Shown here: positions 1 to 23,846 of the stretch, one piece after another | Numbering within the stretch: the stretch's first letter is position 1 | Layout: each line of letters begins with the position of its first letter | Origin: a virus | Virus record (IMG/VR): IMGVR_UViG_3300010885_051823 | Location: 1-35,107 of that record | Direction: 5' to 3' (one strand) | Length of the DNA stretch: 35,107 nt | Notes under the pieces: generated by a model | The model's input: the letters and a program-made list of their open reading frames with translations, nothing else | What the model was told of the DNA's origin: nothing | The model's database searches: none | Program-made: the position numbers and the translations under genes

Positions 1-40
1 GTTACTACCCTATTAACTTCTCTTATTCTTTGCTACCCCT

Positions 41-175
41 GCCCTTGGAAACATTTATCTAGATTAAGTTCTAGCAGTCGTTTCCGAGGGCTATTCTTTT
101 TTGACTACAAATTACCCGTATAATAAAATAACAAATCGTTAAAACCTTTACGCAGTAAGCTTTCGAGGGCTAAAT
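41..175 (+). ncRNA. candidate ωRNA / structured leader of iscB
   Basis: The stretch before iscB can fold strongly. Bases 41-52 (GCCCTTGGAAAC) pair with 80-91 (GTTTCCGAGGGC) over 12 bp with one G-T wobble, enclosing an inner CTAGA/TCTAG stem (59-63 with 70-74). The string CGAGGGCTA occurs in the right arm of this stem and again just before the iscB start codon, which leaves room for a competing or pseudoknot pairing. IscB proteins are known to use an ωRNA encoded directly upstream with its guide at the 5' end. If that applies here, the guide lies at or beyond the left edge. The structure is seen; the ωRNA role is inferred from position. Confidence 0.6.
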
Positions 176-1477
176 ATGAAATATGTATTTTGTTTAAACG
201 CAGACAAAACTCCGATGAATCCGATTAAAGCAGGAGAGGCTAGACATCTTCTTAAAAACAAAAAAGCAGCAGTATTTTTAAATTATCCATTTGTAATTAT
301 TTTAAAAGAACAGAAAATACAGAATCTAATAGAATCATATCGTCTCAAAATAGATCCAGGCGCTTGCTGGACAGGTTTGGCAATAGTAAATGATTGCACG
401 GGAGATGTTATTTGGGCGGCTGAATTGAGACATAGAGGACGTGCTATGCCAGGATTAAAAGAAGGAATAACCGAAAAATTAACGGCTAGGAGATCAATCA
501 GACGGGGAAGAAGAGCTAGGCACACCCGTTATAGAGCGCCAAGGTTTGACAACAGATCTAGAATAAATGGATGGTTGCCCCCAAGTCTACAAAGCAGAAT
601 TTTAAACATAATGACTTGGGTAACTAGATTGAAAAAATTTTGCCTTATTAACGCTATTAGCCAAGAATTAGTAAAATTTAACATGGCATTGATAGACAAT
701 CCCAATATTCAAGGCAAAGAATACCAACAAGGAGAATTATGTGGATACGAAACAAGAGAATATTTATTAGAAAAATGGAATAGACAATGTGCTTATTGTG
801 ACGTTAATAATGTGCCATTAGAAATAGAACATATTATTCCTCGTTCTAAAAACGGATCTAACTCTATCAGAAATTTAACTTTAAGTTGCCATAAATGCAA
901 TATTAAAAAAGGTACGCAAGACATCAAAGATTTTCTTAAAAAAGATCCTAACAGATTAGCAAATATTCTTAAACGTACAAAAATGCCTTTAAAAGATGCG
1001 GCGGCTGTAAATGCTACTAGATGGGCTTTATTGAATGAGTTAAAAAAGACAAAATTGCCTGTAGAGTGTGGCAGTGGCGGGTTAACTAAATACAACCGCA
1101 CATCTCAAAAAATAAACAAATCTCATTGGACTGATGCTGCTTGTGTTGGATTATCTACACCTAAACTTAATATTAAAGGTGTTCAGCCATTAATTATTGC
1201 AGCAATAGGACATGGAAATAGACAGTTATGCCAAACAGATAAATATGGGTTTCCTAAATCACATCGACAAAATGTTAAAAAATATTTTGGATTTCAAACT
1301 GGTGACATTGTTATTGCTAATGTATCAAAAGGTAAACATAAAGGAGTCCACAAAGGTAAATTAACCGTTAGAAAAACAGGATCGTTTGGTATTACTACTA
1401 GTCAAGGTAAAAAAGATGGTATTAATTATAAAAATTGCAAAGTGATTCACAAAGCTGATGGTTACAACTATCAATAA
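176..1477 (+). CDS. iscB: IscB RNA-guided nuclease (RuvC-HNH, OMEGA family)
   Basis: 433 residues, the usual IscB size. Domains in order: N-terminal PLMP-like segment (residues 8-34, here with a TPMNP core); RuvC-I around D60 (KIDPG); Arg-rich bridge helix 105-127 (RRSIRRGRRARHTRYR); RuvC-II with E164; HNH domain 200-246 with zinc pairs C205/C208 and C238/C241 and catalytic IEH at 217-219; RuvC-III with H317 and D320 (HWTDAACVG); then the C-terminal target-recognition-like region (TDKYGFPKSHRQ). All catalytic residues are present, so it looks active. IscB cuts double-stranded DNA matching an ωRNA guide. It is the left-most gene, on the + strand, with the folded leader directly upstream. Its base composition is as AT-rich as its neighbours, which suggests long residence. 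No tnpA is visible. Confidence 0.95.
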   Translation: MKYVFCLNADKTPMNPIKAGEARHLLKNKKAAVFLNYPFVIILKEQKIQNLIESYRLKIDPGACWTGLAIVNDCTGDVIWAAELRHRGRAMPGLKEGITEKLTARRSIRRGRRARHTRYRAPRFDNRSRINGWLPPSLQSRILNIMTWVTRLKKFCLINAISQELVKFNMALIDNPNIQGKEYQQGELCGYETREYLLEKWNRQCAYCDVNNVPLEIEHIIPRSKNGSNSIRNLTLSCHKCNIKKGTQDIKDFLKKDPNRLANILKRTKMPLKDAAAVNATRWALLNELKKTKLPVECGSGGLTKYNRTSQKINKSHWTDAACVGLSTPKLNIKGVQPLIIAAIGHGNRQLCQTDKYGFPKSHRQNVKKYFGFQTGDIVIANVSKGKHKGVHKGKLTVRKTGSFGITTSQGKKDGINYKNCKVIHKADGYNYQ

Positions 1478-1980: not shown

Positions 1981-2277
1981 TTAATTTTCTAAATTTTTTT
2001 TTAAACTTTTAATTTTTTGAACGTGATCTAAAGTTAATTTAGCATTTTCAATAAGCAATTTAAAATTAGCTTCATTAAAACATACACCAGCTATCTTGTG
2101 TGTTTGATTGTTGTCATCAATATACCCTAGCTCTAGAGTGAAATCAAACTCATCTGTAGTGAAACCAAACCGCATCAACCAGCAATTTTCATACCCATTT
2201 TTAAAAGTGTGGTGGTGAACGTCCCAATCAAACTGATTAACTTCTTCTTGGCTTAATTCATTTTTGTCTTTTTCCAT
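1981..2277 (-). CDS. hypothetical protein
   Basis: 98 residues, mostly acidic, with a His cluster (VHHHTF, residues 20-25) and a C-terminal basic helix ending in KSLKKNLEN. No family is recognised. A strong Shine-Dalgarno (AGGAGG, 4 nt before the ATG) sets the start. The right end of the tnpB element lies directly upstream of that Shine-Dalgarno, so the gene has been cut off from its original promoter and may now be read from within the element. Confidence 0.7.
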   Translation of the reverse strand: MEKDKNELSQEEVNQFDWDVHHHTFKNGYENCWLMRFGFTTDEFDFTLELGYIDDNNQTHKIAGVCFNEANFKLLIENAKLTLDHVQKIKSLKKNLEN

Positions 2278-2281
2278 ATAA

Positions 2282-2287
2282 CCTCCT
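2282..2287 (-). promoter_or_regulatory. Shine-Dalgarno of the 98-residue gene at the IS boundary
   Basis: AGGAGG on the minus strand, 4 nt upstream of the ATG at 2277. It decides the start of that gene. The tnpB element's terminal hairpin begins only a few bases further upstream, so any guide segment read out of the element end would contain this site. Confidence 0.8.
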
Positions 2288-2290
2288 AGT

Positions 2291-2325
2291 TGACATCCTC
2301 CCCGACATGAATGTCGAGGATTCCC
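2291..2325 (-). repeat. IS200/IS605-type right-end hairpin of tnpB element 1
   Basis: Imperfect palindrome CGACAT-GA-ATGTCG (2303-2316) with outer ATCCT/AGGAT arms, directly after the tnpB stop codon. IS200/IS605 elements carry subterminal hairpins at both ends, and the 3' end of tnpB plus this hairpin is where TnpB guide RNA (reRNA/ωRNA) scaffolds are encoded. The exact cleavage site and target site cannot be fixed by eye. Confidence 0.75.
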
Positions 2326-3554
2326 TTAAAACAACTTTAATTGTGTTGCTTTAAAGGTGGTTGACACTTCACGGGGTACTGCTTGATTTGACTCAAGTCT
2401 AACATTCCCTCGATGTCCGTTTAAAGTTTCGGTCTGTCCAACCGCAACTTTAGTTATATTTCTAGTATTAAGTATATTTTTACTTGCATTGATATCTCTA
2501 TCGTGGACATCTCTACAGTACAAACAAGTCCATTCTCTTACATTTAATGCCTTTTTACCGCCTATTTGTTGGCAGCTAGAGCACCTTTGAGAGGTTGGTT
2601 CGTATCTGTTAATTATCCTAAACTCCCTGCCATAGATTTCTGATTTAGCAGACAACATATCTCTAAATGTTCTCCAACCTAAATCACTTATAGCACGAGA
2701 GAGTTGACGATTCTTAATCATATTTGAGACTGCTAAATCTTCTAAAACTATTACTTGATTTTCGTTAACAATTTTAGTTGAGAGTTTATGCAGAAAGTCG
2801 TTTCTAGTGTCGGCTATTTTAGCATGTAACTTAGCTACTTTAAGTCTTGCTATCTCACGTCTTTTACTTCCTTTAGTCTTTCTGCTTAAGTTCTTTTGTA
2901 GTCTCTTTAATTTCCTCAAATATTTCTTAAGAGGCTTAGGGGCTTTAACTTTCTCTCCAGTCGATAGGGTTGCAAAATCGGTAATTCCTAAATCAATACC
3001 TACTGACTTACCGTTATCTGGTAATTGAGTAGGATTAATCTCTACTAGAAAACTTAAGAAATAGCGATTAGCAGCATCTTTTATGACTGTTACACTCGTA
3101 GGAACAGAAGGTAAATCTCTAGACCAAATAATCTCTAATTGACCTATTTTAGGTAGATAGACTTTATCTTGGAGTACCTTGAAAGCGTTATTAGTAAACC
3201 TAGCAGTCTGGTATCCTCTACGTCTTTTAAACTTAGGTGGCTTAACTTTAATGCCTTTTCTTTTTCCTTTAATTGAATTAAAAAAGTTAGAATAAGCTGT
3301 CTCCAAATCCCTAATAGATTGTTGCAATGGAACGCTAGAAACTTCACCTAACCACTTCTTCTCTTCTGTTTTTTGGCTTGAGTTAATCTCTTACTTAATT
3401 CTGTTTCTTTAGGCTTTTTACCCCCATTCTTATATTGTTCTTGACAGAAAGCTAGAGCGTCATTCCAAGCTACGCGACAACAACCAAAAAGTTGAGCTAA
3501 ACTTATTAGTTGTGTGTTAGTTGGGTAAATGCGATACTTATATCTAGCTTTCAT
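2326..3554 (-). pseudogene. tnpB: TnpB RNA-guided nuclease, broken by a single-base frameshift
   Basis: Two adjoining frames together give one complete TnpB. The N-terminal part (3554-3348, starting MKARYKYRIYP) runs into a stop. The rest (read from about 3375 to 2326) continues with WLGEVSSVPLQQ. The break maps to an A6 run on the coding strand (3369-3374); one more A, or a -1 slip there, restores KKTEEKKWLGEV. Within the second frame, numbered from its ATG at 3327, all catalytic features are present: D112 (GIDLG), E196 (LEDL), zinc pairs C249/C252 and C268/C271, D278 (DRD). The protein ends QLKLF, a sliding-clamp-binding type motif. TnpB cuts DNA next to a short TAM, guided by RNA from the element's 3' end. 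No TnpA is present. Confidence 0.9.
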
Positions 3555-3609: not shown

Positions 3610-3780
3610 ATGTCAAGATTAGATTTAATTGTTTCAGAAGAAGAAAAACGACTCTTAGAAGAGTACTGTAGGAAGACGAAAAGAACAAAGACTGATGTTC
3701 TCAGAGAGTTAATTAGGAGTTTAAACCCGAATACAAAGCCGTCCTGAAGGACGGGGTTTTAGACCCAATTTTTCGATAAA
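3610..3780 (+). CDS. small ribbon-helix-helix (CopG/Arc-like) protein
   Basis: 56 residues, divergent from tnpB. It starts MSRLDLIVSEEEKRLLEEYC and continues RTKTDVLRELIRSF: a β-strand followed by two helices, the ribbon-helix-helix DNA-binding pattern. Such small proteins are often found beside cyanobacterial tnpB elements and may repress them. The last ~15 residues are encoded by the element's terminal hairpin (3740-3755), so the natural C-terminus may differ. The 55-bp tnpB/RHH interval would hold divergent promoters. The fold is an inference from the sequence pattern. Confidence 0.6.
3737..3780. repeat. left-end hairpin of tnpB element 1 (shared repeat)
   Basis: CCGTCC-TGAA-GGACGG hairpin (3740-3755) followed by GGGGTTTT and a short GGG...CCC stem. 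A second copy with the same layout lies at 18537-18580 far from any tnpB. It probably marks the left end of the tnpB element and may also act as a terminator. Confidence 0.6.
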
Positions 3781-3814: not shown

Positions 3815-4600
3815 TTAAACTATATTATTAATTTTCCAAAAATTAGAAGCTAAAGAATTACCATCTTGGTCATCACCTACTAGATATTCATAAGGCATTG
3901 TAAAATAACCTTTTTGTCCCCAATGTTCACCCCATGAATTTCTGACAATAAATACTTTTTTAGTATCATCATAACCCACTGCTAAGACTGCATGACCACC
4001 TAAAATTTCTTCATTATCAAAATCAGGAAATTTAAGAACACCTGATTGAGCTACTTCCGGACTTTCAAAAGAACTATAGACAGTAAACCCAAATACAAAA
4101 GGATAACCACTGGCTAAAGCTTGTTTAAATGTCAAAATGCTTTGAGCTAAACTTTCATATTTAATGCCTTTGTGCAATGATGCTGCTACATAAACTGATG
4201 GTGATGGTTTTTGTTTAAATTTAATATCATCATCTGAATAAGTCCATAGAGGCTCTGGAGGAACACCAAATTTAGCAACAGTGTGAATGCCATCATGTAT
4301 TTCTGCTCCTGCATCTTCGTCAACAGTGCCTTCAATAACTCGTTCGTTATAGTAAATAAATAAACGAGAAGGTTGGAAAACTGGTAATTTTTCTTTAATT
4401 AAATCAAATTCAAGAGCACCAGCAATAGCATTAGCTGTACAAGAGCCTAAAGATCCTTGATTGTAAACTGCAGGACATTTTGGTCTTAAATCAACTTTAA
4501 CAGGTAAATTTTCAACAGTAAGCAAAGAATGAAATTTAGGAGCGGTTTCATCTTTAACTTTGCTACGAATCCAACCATATTTACGAGTAATGTTAGTCAT
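3815..4600 (-). CDS. papain-like cysteine protease (C1 family, xylellain-like)
   Basis: About 261 residues from the ATG at 4600; an upstream in-frame TTG at 4609 is possible. Counting from that TTG, the papain signatures are the oxyanion-hole Q51 and C57 in QGSLGSCTANA, H206 in GGHAVLAVGYDD, and N224 in RNSWGEHWGQKGYF. A short N-terminal stretch before KVDLRPKCP replaces a long propeptide, as in xylellain-like C1 peptidases. There is no signal peptide. It is the last gene of the leftward structural operon, just before a terminator. A full catalytic set suggests an active protease for virion maturation, host takeover or entry; the sequence does not tell which. C1 proteases are unusual in phages. 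Confidence 0.9.
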   Translation of the reverse strand: MTNITRKYGWIRSKVKDETAPKFHSLLTVENLPVKVDLRPKCPAVYNQGSLGSCTANAIAGALEFDLIKEKLPVFQPSRLFIYYNERVIEGTVDEDAGAEIHDGIHTVAKFGVPPEPLWTYSDDDIKFKQKPSPSVYVAASLHKGIKYESLAQSILTFKQALASGYPFVFGFTVYSSFESPEVAQSGVLKFPDFDNEEILGGHAVLAVGYDDTKKVFIVRNSWGEHWGQKGYFTMPYEYLVGDDQDGNSLASNFWKINNIV

Positions 4601-4663
4601 ATTTATCAAATTAATAATCTTTAATACAAATGATTATAAACTAAAATTGTCAACATGTTTTCA

Positions 4664-5135: not shown

Positions 5136-5342
5136 TTAATAAATATTTTTATTTTTAAATGTGTTTAACAATTTAATATGTTCTAAAGATTTAAACCCAT
5201 GCTTTATGCCGTGCTCTATCAAAGTTTCTTCAATGTAAATGTTCCCATTGTCAAGATACCAATGAAGACCTTTAATTAACATACCTTGTCGATTAAAATT
5301 TTGAATATGTTCTGGCAATTCAGGAATTAATGTGTAAGTCAT
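5136..5342 (-). CDS. hypothetical protein
   Basis: 68 residues, not recognised. It contains a GLHWYLDNGNIYIEE stretch and a Lys-rich C-terminus. The start is an ATG; the stop of a 37-residue membrane peptide lies 2 nt upstream, which suggests coupling. It is part of the leftward operon. Confidence 0.55.
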   Translation of the reverse strand: MTYTLIPELPEHIQNFNRQGMLIKGLHWYLDNGNIYIEETLIEHGIKHGFKSLEHIKLLNTFKNKNIY

Positions 5343-5343
5343 A

Positions 5344-5457
5344 TTAATTATTTAAAATATTAATACAAAATAATATTAACCACAACGCTAAACCAATAAT
5401 AAATATTACCGTTAACACTGACAACAATTGGTCAACATAAACAATTAAAAAAATCAT
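5344..5457 (-). CDS. 37-residue predicted membrane peptide
   Basis: A short ORF starting MIFLIVYVDQLLSVLTVIF and continuing almost entirely hydrophobic (LALWLILF) to residue 32: one or two membrane passes with a polar Asn-rich end. It fits exactly between neighbours, with its stop 2 nt before the next start. No Shine-Dalgarno is obvious. It could be a small holin-like or lysis-accessory peptide; function is unknown. Confidence 0.45.
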   Translation of the reverse strand: MIFLIVYVDQLLSVLTVIFIIGLALWLILFCINILNN

Positions 5458-17724: not shown

Positions 17725-18537
17725 ATGCCCACATATATTTTGTATCACGCTAATTGTTTAGATGGGTTTGGCGCTGCTTATGCTGCTTGGAAAAGGTTTG
17801 GGAATAGCGCTCAATATATTCCCGTACAATATCAACAAGACCCCCCAGAGATGGAATTAAACTCTGAAATTTACATTGTTGATTTTTCATACCCATTGGA
17901 AACATTACAAAACCTTCAATCTCTTCACAAAAAAGTTTGTGTATTAGACCATCACGTCACAGCTAAAGAAGCATTACTATCTTACAAAGATTCAATATTT
18001 GACCTTAATAAATCTGGTGCGGTCATTACATGGGAATATTTTCATCCAGATATGCAAGTTCCTTGGCTTTTACAAGCTGTTCAAGATAGAGACCTTTGGC
18101 AGTTTAAATTTGAAGATACCAAAGCCATTACTGCTGCTTTGTGGGTCGGTAACAAAACTTTTAAATTTTGGGATGATTTGATAGGTTGGGATGATCCTGA
18201 TCAACAATTTAAAAATGTTCAAAATTTAATTCAAGTTGGTAATTATTTGTTAAAACAGCAAGACCAAATAGTTGAACATCAAGCCAAAAATAGCTATAAA
18301 AAAACTCTACCTAATAGACGTACATTGTGGGTTACTAATACCGCAAACTTTCCTAGTGAAACTTGTCAAGCCATTATGACGTTACGTGAGGTTAATATTG
18401 CTGCTACTTGGTATGAAACCTCTGAAGGGATAATCTATTCGTTTAGAAGCAAAAATGATGAAGATGCAGGAGAATTAGCCAAAGAATTAGGAGGTGGCGG
18501 TCATCGTCATGCAAGCGGGGCAATGATTAAAAATTAA
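17725..18537 (+). CDS. DHH/DHHA1 phosphoesterase (NrnA/RecJ-like)
   Basis: 270 residues. DHH motifs in order: HANCLDGFGAAYAAW (8-22), IYIVDFSYP, VLDHH (76-80), QDRDLWQF; then the C-terminal DHHA1 signature GGGGHRHASGA (255-265). These Mn-dependent enzymes cleave short oligonucleotides, single-stranded DNA or cyclic dinucleotides. In a phage, recycling of nanoRNA/DNA to mononucleotides is the likeliest job, which fits the dNTP genes to the right. Length and motifs are complete. It converges on the exonuclease gene with stops overlapping by 4 nt. Confidence 0.88.
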   Translation: MPTYILYHANCLDGFGAAYAAWKRFGNSAQYIPVQYQQDPPEMELNSEIYIVDFSYPLETLQNLQSLHKKVCVLDHHVTAKEALLSYKDSIFDLNKSGAVITWEYFHPDMQVPWLLQAVQDRDLWQFKFEDTKAITAALWVGNKTFKFWDDLIGWDDPDQQFKNVQNLIQVGNYLLKQQDQIVEHQAKNSYKKTLPNRRTLWVTNTANFPSETCQAIMTLREVNIAATWYETSEGIIYSFRSKNDEDAGELAKELGGGGHRHASGAMIKN

Positions 18538-19193
18538 AGCCGTCTTGAAAGACGGGGTTTTGACCCATTTTCCTGATAATTACCTAAATTTTGATATTCA
18601 CTCAATCTAGACAACCATGTCTCCCATAGATTCCACTTTTCCTCTTGGTTAAAGTGGAATAATTGCACAGTGTGAGGACAAACAACAGCAATCAAACCAG
18701 AATTAATTTCTACATGGTGCATCTCCTGATAAGCCTGTTGATATGCGGCTATTTGAAGAAATTCATCTTGCATCCAGTTTGATTGTTTTTCCTTTTCAGA
18801 AGTTTTAATGTCAATCAAAGTTAGTTCATTTTCATAGTTTGCCAATAAATCCAATTTGCCAGCATAACCAAAACTACGACTGTATACTACTTTTTCTGAA
18901 CATATAACTTTGCTAATTAATTTTAAAAAAGATTGAGTATTGCGCCAAAAATCTTTAAACTCTTCTGGACAGACCATATTCCAGCCATATAACTCAGCTT
19001 CTATTAAAGAATGAATAGTTGATCCTCTTTTAATTGAATTTTGTTTAATAATTTTAGCTTGTTCTTCTCCTATTTCTTGTTCCCACTTTTTAAAATGTTC
19101 AATTTTTTCAGGAGCCAAAGTTTTTCTTAAAATTGATGTAACACTTGGAAATTCCCCATCTGGTGTCGAATATAGACCAAATTTTGCTGCCAT
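18534..19193 (-). CDS. PD-(D/E)XK exonuclease (RecB/Cas4/MGME1-like)
   Basis: 219 residues. FPSVTSILRKTL and RGSTIHSLIEAEL at the front, then the core GYAGKLDLLANYENELTLID followed by IKTS (metal-binding Asp, Asp-x-Lys), and QIAAYQQAYQE, the QxxxY motif of RecB-type nucleases. It probably processes DNA ends during replication or recombination. The last ten residues (GSKPRLSRRL) are encoded by the repeat hairpin at 18537-18580, so the natural C-terminus was probably altered by that insertion; the catalytic core is intact. Confidence 0.85.
   Translation of the reverse strand: MAAKFGLYSTPDGEFPSVTSILRKTLAPEKIEHFKKWEQEIGEEQAKIIKQNSIKRGSTIHSLIEAELYGWNMVCPEEFKDFWRNTQSFLKLISKVICSEKVVYSRSFGYAGKLDLLANYENELTLIDIKTSEKEKQSNWMQDEFLQIAAYQQAYQEMHHVEINSGLIAVVCPHTVQLFHFNQEEKWNLWETWLSRLSEYQNLGNYQENGSKPRLSRRL
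18537..18580. repeat. orphan copy of the IS left-end hairpin; also convergent terminator
   Basis: CCGTCT-TGAA-AGACGG (18540-18555), then GGGGTTTT, GACCCA and a TGATAA end. It matches 3737-3780 closely, including the loop, and the closing stem pair has changed C-G to T-A on both sides. It lies exactly between the convergent DHH and exonuclease genes, with no tnpB nearby, and could terminate transcription from both sides. Confidence 0.7.
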
Positions 19194-22582: not shown

Positions 22583-22609
22583 CGCTAGCCGCCTACGGCT
22601 GAGCTAGCG
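22583..22609 (-). repeat. right-end hairpin of tnpB element 2
   Basis: CGCTAGC (22583-22589) pairs with GCTAGCG (22603-22609), with an inner AGCCG/CGGCT stem and CCTA loop. The tnpB stop codon lies inside the hairpin loop, the arrangement in which tnpB 3' ends double as guide-RNA scaffold. Confidence 0.75.
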
Positions 22610-23846
22610 GTTTCGGTTGCTTCGTCATAGTTTCTTGCTTCCAACCGCCACATTTTACTGTAGGTTTGGAAGTAGAGGATACTACTCCACAATTATTGAG
22701 GCTAGTTCCTAACCCCAGAGCGTAATTGAGCATTACTTTCGCTGCGGCCACGTCCCGATTTAAGGTACAGCCACAACTACAGCTATGCACTCGCTCGTTT
22801 AATTCTTTCTTCTTCTTAGCGCCACAATTAGGACAGGTTTGACTAGCGGCTATTTTGATTGGAACTTCGACAAATACTCCATCACACTCGCTTAATTTAT
22901 ATTTAATTAGTGAGGTTAGGTTGCCTATTCCAACATCCAAAAGGCTTCGATTTAATCCCGTCTTCTGGGCTTTTCTTTTGCTACCTTTCTTAGCCTTTTT
23001 AGTCATAGCCTTGATATTGAGTTTCTCTGTAGCAATTAGGCTATTACCGCTAACTAATTTTGCTGCTACTTTATGAGACCAATCTGTCCTTTGTCGTGTG
23101 ACTTTGTTCTGTAACTTACTTACATTCTTCCTAGCTTTTCTCCAGTTCTTAGAACCCTTAACTTTCTTCCTGAAGTTGGGCGCTTGTTTTCTTTTTAATG
23201 AACGAGATGCTTGCTTAACCTTAGCCCTAGACTGAGTTAGATACTTTGGATTATCTATCAAGGTACCATCGCTACAGGCTACGGCATGATTAACACCAAA
23301 ATCCAAGCCTATTGCACCCTGATCAGTTGTTCTAGTCGGCTCACAATCTACTGTTATGGATGCGTACCATTTGCCATCTTTAAAGATAATCGTACAAGTC
23401 TTAGGCATTCCCCAAGTTCTTGCTTTTCCTCTCATCTGGATAGAACCTAAATTGCTTAGATTTAGATAACCATTTTCTCCATTAGTAGTAGCTTTCCAAC
23501 CTGCTATACATGGGTAAGTCCAGCCCCTGTAATGGTGAAAAGACTTAAACTTTGGCTTACCTCCTAATCCATTGAAGAAACGTTGGTAGGCAAAATCTAC
23601 CCGTTTAACTGTCGCTTGTAGTGCATGACTCCCCAACTCTTTATAATCTGGCCAGCACTCTTTAAAAGCTGGTAAGAGGTTCTGCTGGTCAAAGTAATTG
23701 ATGGACTTTCCTAACTTTTCGTACTGTATCTTGCGTTCATGCAAGCAAGCATTATATAGTTGTTGATGCAACTTGCGCCAATTATGTAATTGCTTCTCTT
23801 GTGCTTGTTTTGGATACAGTCTAAAAGTTATTCGTCTGGTAGCCAT
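22593..23846 (-). CDS. tnpB: TnpB RNA-guided nuclease (intact)
   Basis: 417 residues, uninterrupted. The N-terminal helix-turn-helix/wedge part begins MATRRITFRLYPKQAQEKQL. Catalytic D182 (IGLDFGVNHA), E274 (IATEKLNI) and D365 (LNRDVAAAK) are present; zinc ligands C338/C341 and C356/C358 (CPNCG; CSCG). It is of the IS891/IS1341-like type, distinct from TnpB1. TnpB uses RNA from the element's 3' end to cut donor-type sites, which helps element retention. No tnpA is visible, so movement would need help in trans. Its base composition is clearly richer in G+C than the phage background, indicating recent arrival. Confidence 0.95.
   Translation of the reverse strand: MATRRITFRLYPKQAQEKQLHNWRKLHQQLYNACLHERKIQYEKLGKSINYFDQQNLLPAFKECWPDYKELGSHALQATVKRVDFAYQRFFNGLGGKPKFKSFHHYRGWTYPCIAGWKATTNGENGYLNLSNLGSIQMRGKARTWGMPKTCTIIFKDGKWYASITVDCEPTRTTDQGAIGLDFGVNHAVACSDGTLIDNPKYLTQSRAKVKQASRSLKRKQAPNFRKKVKGSKNWRKARKNVSKLQNKVTRQRTDWSHKVAAKLVSGNSLIATEKLNIKAMTKKAKKGSKRKAQKTGLNRSLLDVGIGNLTSLIKYKLSECDGVFVEVPIKIAASQTCPNCGAKKKKELNERVHSCSCGCTLNRDVAAAKVMLNYALGLGTSLNNCGVVSSTSKPTVKCGGWKQETMTKQPKPLAQP

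What the first reader, a model, noticed from the sequence alone, without database searches (positions are those of the whole stretch)
41..1477. Phage-borne IscB with an intact active site and a folded upstream ωRNA candidate
IscB has every RuvC and HNH catalytic residue and is preceded by a 12-bp stem with an inner stem, plus a repeated CGAGGGCTA that allows a pseudoknot. IscB is an ancestor-type Cas9 relative normally studied in transposons. One inside an AT-rich, lytic-type gene set may have become a phage tool (competitor exclusion or homing). Composition matching the neighbours supports long residence.
Basis: partly seen in the sequence, partly recalled or inferred. Interest (0 to 1): 0.72.

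Follow-up and report, generated by a model that had tools for sequence, protein, structure and literature searches.

The report
Phage IscB without its usual guide RNA
A virus of (probably) filamentous cyanobacteria carries an intact gene for IscB, the small RNA-guided DNA cutter related to Cas9, but the guide RNA that sits just in front of this gene in practically every relative is not recognisable here, and the hairpin taken for it looks more like a transcription stop signal.

Summary
The protein half of the finding is right. ORF 176-1477 is a full-length IscB (NCBIfam NF040563, 416 bits, cut-off 175) with all RuvC/HNH catalytic residues, nested in a clade of Nostocales plasmid IscBs but on a long branch. 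The window is a 35-kb fragment of a large phage related to Nodularia/Cylindrospermopsis phages.

The RNA half is not supported. IscB's omegaRNA is the Rfam family HEARO. HEARO lies beside iscB in 103 of 104 related loci (the exception has 105 nt upstream), including relatives at 27-32% identity and contigs cut off within the RNA. Nothing above chance is found at window 1-175 or elsewhere in the 35 kb. The 12-bp hairpin (41-91) is real (z -6.6), but nothing folds behind it; followed by TATTCTTTTTT, it resembles an intrinsic terminator. The second CGAGGGCTA is iscB's ribosome-binding site. Two direct repeats cannot pair with each other.

Phage-borne IscB is already known. The anomaly is an apparently constrained IscB whose guide RNA is lost, displaced or remodelled; the contig edge prevents a decision. 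Side results: a recent 1.5-kb HEARO-IscB insertion in a Nodularia phage, stand-alone HEAROs in viral contigs, and phage IscBs beside CRISPR arrays.

The parts
176..1477 (+). iscB, 433 aa, full-length IscB with RuvC and HNH catalytic residues
   Evidence: NF040563 416 bits; Pfam RRXRR and HNH; conserved residues; tree
41..91 (+). hairpin, 12-bp outer stem (41-52 with 80-91) and inner stem; terminator-like rather than omegaRNA
   Evidence: -26.7 kcal/mol, z -6.6; strongest T-tailed hairpin of the window
92..102 (+). U-rich tract TATTCTTTTTT directly behind the hairpin
   Evidence: sequence, scan
101..129 (+). promoter-like TTGACT-17-TAAAAT (10 of 12 matches); weak evidence, such sites are hardly commoner than in shuffles
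164..172 (+). second CGAGGGCTA; GAGGG lies 6 nt before the ATG = ribosome-binding site of iscB, in the place of the siblings' GGAGGGAC / GGAGGGGC
1..175 (+). region where relatives carry the HEARO omegaRNA; no HEARO recognisable; contig begins here
   Evidence: Rfam at E<=10: none; own model R1 2.0 bits

Best explanation
This is an intact, apparently selected IscB nuclease gene that descends from the HEARO-IscB elements of Nostocales cyanobacteria and is carried by a large cyanophage-type virus. The HEARO omegaRNA that should end within about 93 nt of the start codon is not there. In its place stand a terminator-like hairpin, a possible promoter and a ribosome-binding site, so iscB is read as a free-standing gene. 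Shown: protein family, active site, ancestry, absence of a recognisable HEARO at 1-175 and in the 35 kb. Inferred, not shown: the protein still cuts DNA under RNA guidance, with the RNA supplied in trans, either by a HEARO elsewhere in the unsequenced rest of the phage or by the host's HEARO copies.
For: Protein. Nostocales clade with support 97 and 99, end branch 0.71 against 0.07-0.27 for siblings, while conserved sites are kept and differences fall mostly on third codon positions. HEARO present in 103 of 104 relatives by model R1, in 45 of 49 and 17 of 18 records above Rfam's cut-off, but not in the window. HEARO 3' end to ATG: median 27 nt, largest 93 nt in 69 loci. Fold and T tract. Stand-alone HEAROs without an IscB beside them exist in viral contigs (G043 at 131 and 151 kb, G038 at 5 kb, W03 at 377 kb).
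Against: No RNA or activity data. The contig starts 175 nt before the gene, so a HEARO further left is not excluded; in one relative (L048) the HEARO lies about 500 nt away. No HEARO was found in trans in the 35 kb available. The long branch could also reflect relaxed constraint. The 1-175 segment could be a bad contig end.
Confidence: 0.42

Rival explanations
1. Decaying copy: the RNA half of a HEARO-IscB element was deleted or replaced recently; the nuclease gene is still open but has no guide and no RNA-guided function.
For: HEARO not detectable; a neighbouring TnpB gene is frameshifted (2326-3554), so OMEGA elements do decay in this phage; long protein branch.
Against: All catalytic and bridge-helix residues and all fully conserved columns checked are intact despite much divergence; third-position bias of differences.
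Confidence: 0.23
2. Remodelled cis omegaRNA: the hairpin 41-91 is the guide-adaptor stem of a much shortened, non-HEARO omegaRNA, with the guide at about 25-40.
For: Stable hairpin at a plausible place; the protein keeps its RNA-binding residues; protein and RNA may have changed together on the long branch.
Against: 91-175 is unstructured (z about 0; siblings' 3' domains fold at -33 to -45 kcal/mol). Relatives at 27-32% protein identity still keep HEARO. The hairpin is followed by a T tract like a terminator. No homologue of 1-180 in phages or plasmids to test covariation.
Confidence: 0.12
3. Displaced HEARO: an ordinary HEARO lies beyond the contig start, separated from iscB by an insertion, perhaps as part of a CRISPR-associated arrangement as in the nearest phage relative.
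For: In L048, from the nearest phage relative, the HEARO ends about 500 nt before iscB with CRISPR repeats between. A terminator at 41-102 would suit the end of a separate RNA transcript.
Against: Only one of about 104 loci is arranged so; no repeats in 1-175 or elsewhere in the window.
Confidence: 0.13
4. Contig-end artefact: the first 175 bases are a wrong join, and the real upstream region holds an ordinary HEARO.
For: The contig breaks exactly here; contigs of several relatives (L007, L071, L103) also end inside the element.
Against: Composition of 1-175 (GC 0.36) fits the phage; a well-placed ribosome-binding site leads into the gene as in siblings.
Confidence: 0.1

Closest known systems
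IscB of OMEGA/HEARO systems (NCBIfam NF040563; solved examples OgeuIscB, HfmIscB)
   Same: Domain order, catalytic residues and bridge helix; closest by sequence to Nostocales plasmid IscBs (62.7% to Anabaena cylindrica pANACY.01)
   Different: No recognisable HEARO in front of the gene; long branch
HEARO-IscB element of Nodularia phage vB_NspS-kac68v162
   Same: IscB in a related large phage of a filamentous cyanobacterium (48% identity)
   Different: Has HEARO (82.7 bits) and is a precise 1,526-bp insertion in a TnpB gene
IscB of contig IMGVR_UViG_3300025390_000524 (L048, L131)
   Same: Phage shares more than 20 genes with the window, mostly 33-69% aa identity; IscB 49% identical
   Different: Other insertion site (between TerL and the next gene), two HEAROs, CRISPR repeats on both sides of iscB

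Membership tests
IscB protein family | Match to the IscB family model above its curated cut-off | tested here: met
   NF040563 416 bits, cut-off 175
IscB protein family | RuvC-I/II/III and HNH catalytic residues | tested here: met
   D60, E164, H317, D320; H219, N233, N242
IscB protein family | PLMP-type N-terminus, Arg-rich bridge helix, C-terminal TAM-interacting domain | tested here: met
   Aligned end to end with siblings, conserved columns kept
OMEGA (IscB plus omegaRNA) system | HEARO-type omegaRNA directly upstream of iscB | tested here: not met
   positive controls. Caveat: the contig starts at -175
OMEGA (IscB plus omegaRNA) system | Guide equals the DNA flanking the element's left end | not testable with these tools
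   Left flank lies beyond the contig start; no overlapping contig
OMEGA (IscB plus omegaRNA) system | RNA-guided DNA cleavage | not testable with these tools
   needs biochemistry
Intrinsic terminator (hairpin 41-102) | Stable GC-rich stem directly followed by a U tract | tested here: met
   but the loop is long (inner stem), and the default terminator scan, limited to loops of 3-8, does not list it
CRISPR-associated IscB | CRISPR array beside iscB | tested here: not met
   no array in the window; left flank beyond the contig unknown

The most novel reading that the evidence does not exclude
A phage IscB that has given up its cis HEARO and works as a trans-guided or otherwise guided nuclease (host- or phage-supplied HEARO, or a minimal non-HEARO RNA), a separation of effector and guide like that on the way from IscB to Cas9.
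Probability: 0.2. Interest if true: 0.65.

Novelty: new member of a known kind. Interest (0 to 1): 0.4.

Why it matters
If the gene works without a neighbouring HEARO, it separates the nuclease from its guide and makes guiding in trans by stand-alone HEAROs directly testable. If not, it is one more phage IscB, with a broken RNA half. For the family, the survey gives a working rule: HEARO is nearly always present and ends within 93 nt of iscB, so exceptions like this one stand out. It also shows that cyanophages exchange these elements.

Tried and rejected
An eye alignment of window 1-175 with the 3' part of sibling HEAROs (CTAC boxes, AATAACA, equal length) looked persuasive but failed the tests: model R1 2.0 bits, pairwise z 0.7-1.7, and a sibling control score of +52 against -12 for the window. 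Including the ribosome-binding site raises the pairwise score (2 of 300 shuffles), which says only that the ribosome-binding site is shared.

Direct repeats in 1-175 as relics of a CRISPR array: not above shuffles (56 of 500).

Rfam HgcC at 2277-2411: below its cut-off.

Near-identical contigs to extend leftwards: none. Similarity search of 1-180: no useful match.

The genome-contig scan returned two false relatives (an HNH protein and a lipoamide dehydrogenase-like protein). Relatives by taxonomy could not be drawn for a virus record.

Domain-wise rate test for loss of RNA binding: the bridge helix and PLMP diverged more than HNH (ratios 3.4 and 1.9 against 1.3), but phage IscBs that keep HEARO are about as far from the siblings in the bridge helix, so it is not diagnostic.

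Full report
What the window is. It is a 35,107-base IMG/VR virus record with no estimate of completeness. It holds a terminase large subunit, a DNA polymerase III beta-like clamp, ribonucleotide reductase, ThyX, a dUTPase-like protein, a helicase/primase protein and one tRNA-Thr. The terminase is closest to Nodularia and Cylindrospermopsis phages (34-39%) and, in IMG/VR, to contig 3300025390_000524 (54%). That contig shares more than 20 genes with the window, mostly at 33-69% amino-acid identity. The host is therefore probably a filamentous cyanobacterium (inference).

The protein. ORF 176-1477 is IscB: NF040563 at 416 bits against a cut-off of 175, Pfam RRXRR and HNH, and solved IscB chains as best PDB matches. 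In an alignment of 70 IscBs the fully conserved columns checked are all kept: D60, E164, H317 and D320 of RuvC, H219, N233 and N242 of HNH, and the arginines of the bridge helix. Only three nearly invariant positions deviate (T40V, D169N, Q171A). In a quick maximum-likelihood tree (the careful search did not finish) the window sits inside a clade of Nostocales plasmid IscBs plus two viral contigs (support 97 and 99). Its end branch is 0.71, against 0.07-0.27 for its siblings. Differences to siblings fall mainly on third codon positions. So the gene came from Nostocales-type elements, changed a lot, and stayed constrained.

The guide RNA in relatives. Rfam HEARO (RF02033) is the omegaRNA of IscB. 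It was found in front of iscB in all three reference phages, in 19 of the first 20 IMG/VR loci, in all eight Nostocales plasmid loci, and above its cut-off in 45 of 49 and 17 of 18 whole records. Phage IscBs at 27-32% identity, from staphylococcal, clostridial and gut phages, also have it, some below the cut-off. The Rfam search missed L007, whose contig starts 110 nt before the gene, so a truncated HEARO can be missed. I therefore built a model of the HEARO 3' domain from 40 relatives (R1). It finds HEARO in 88 of 88 loci (the 40 model sequences match by construction) and in 15 of 16 others. Its controls include L007 (78 bits from 94 nt), L071 (cut off, 114 bits) and divergent L069 (31 bits). 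The one miss, L103, has 105 nt upstream and shows the HEARO 3' signature AACATTGTCGA by eye. Some loci are near-duplicates, so the counts are not independent.

The guide RNA in the window. With filters off, 1-175 gives 2.0 bits, and the whole 35 kb gives nothing above chance (best 10.4 bits, E 0.33). Pairwise alignment to sibling HEAROs is no better than shuffles once the ribosome-binding site is left out. In 69 loci the HEARO ends 16-93 nt before the ATG, so most of it should lie inside 1-175.

What stands there instead. The hairpin 41-52/80-91 is real (z -6.6), but 91-175 is unstructured (z about 0) whereas the siblings' 3' domains fold at -33 to -45 kcal/mol. The hairpin is followed by TATTCTTTTTT and is the strongest T-tailed hairpin of the window. 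A promoter-like TTGACT-17-TAAAAT follows. GAGGG then lies six bases before the ATG, in the place of the siblings' GGAGGGAC or GGAGGGGC. The second CGAGGGCTA is thus the ribosome-binding site, and the two copies, being direct repeats, cannot pair with each other.

Reading. Most likely this is a selected IscB gene without a cis HEARO, read from its own leader; if it is active, its RNA must come in trans. That last step is inference, helped by stand-alone HEAROs in other viral contigs. The rivals are decay, a remodelled cis RNA, a HEARO displaced beyond the contig end, and a bad join at the contig end. The contig edge at -175 keeps all of them alive.

Context in phages. IscB in phages is known: over 16% of fragments encoding these nucleases were viral or prophage-derived, and only 65% of their 5' leaders hit RF02033, in PMC9755519. 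So lack of a hit is not rare in the wider family, though it is in this sample. In Nodularia phage kac68v162 a 1,526-bp insert of HEARO plus IscB splits a TnpB gene that is whole in kac68v161 and kac65v151, with 99.7-100% identical flanks. This is direct evidence of recent movement. The window's nearest phage relative carries its own IscB elsewhere, between TerL and the next gene, where the window has none, so the two phages acquired IscB separately.

Side result. That relative has 36-nt CRISPR-like repeats on both sides of iscB, and two HEAROs whose guide position is complementary to the repeat: -19.5 and -21.0 kcal/mol, with 3 and 0 of 1000 shuffled repeats as good. A second phage group (L011, L018 and kin) has arrays just downstream of iscB and a similar complement (-15.7 kcal/mol, 2 of 1000). 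Control leaders of HEAROs without arrays, taken as longer 50-nt stretches, reached -18.8 and -23.2 kcal/mol against the same repeats, so this needs a stricter test. None of 67 spacers matched the window or other held loci convincingly.

Noticed in passing
L131 6017-9453 (contig IMGVR_UViG_3300025390_000524, about 42-45.5 kb); same region in L048: Phage IscB flanked on both sides by CRISPR-like arrays (36-nt repeat, 72-78 nt period) with two HEAROs whose guide position is complementary to the repeat (3 and 0 of 1000 shuffled repeats as good), like a tracrRNA.
   Followed up: partly
L011, L012, L018, L022, L023, L025, L028, L032 (e.g. L018 4398-5759): Second phage group with a CRISPR array (repeat GTTAATGATTGTATTGGTTCTTGATTGATCTGATAC, up to 17 units found) directly downstream of iscB, and a HEARO 5' end complementary to the repeat (2 of 1000).
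   Followed up: partly
L005 3781-5309 (Nodularia phage kac68v162) against L134 and L133: A 1,526-bp HEARO+IscB insert in a TnpB gene is absent from sister phages kac68v161 and kac65v151 (99.7-100% flanks): a precise filled and empty site for a transposase-less element in phages.
   Followed up: yes
G043 131324-131548 and 151340-151549; G038 5145-5365; W03 377116-377337: Stand-alone HEAROs in viral contigs with no IscB beside them.
   Followed up: partly
window 2326-3554 (-): TnpB gene split by a frameshift into two ORFs; a second TnpB at 22593-23846 is intact.
   Followed up: partly
window 3735-3760 and 18536-18561: Two 92% identical copies of a 26-nt hairpin end (AAAGCCGTCCTGAAGGACGGGGTTTT), one near the frameshifted TnpB, the other between ORFs without a TnpB: possible orphan IS end.
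   Followed up: no
window 3815-4609 (-): Papain-family cysteine protease, 51% identical to one in a 595-kb uncultured phage and 44% to one in Burkholderia phage FLC9.
   Followed up: no
window 2277-2411 (-): Weak similarity of the TnpB 3' end to the RNA family HgcC (22.6 bits, cut-off 50); may reflect a TnpB omegaRNA end, or chance.
   Followed up: no
L093, L094: Staphylococcal Herelleviridae phages carry a diverged IscB with a weak HEARO (32-37 bits), annotated as HEARO in PV295866.
   Followed up: partly
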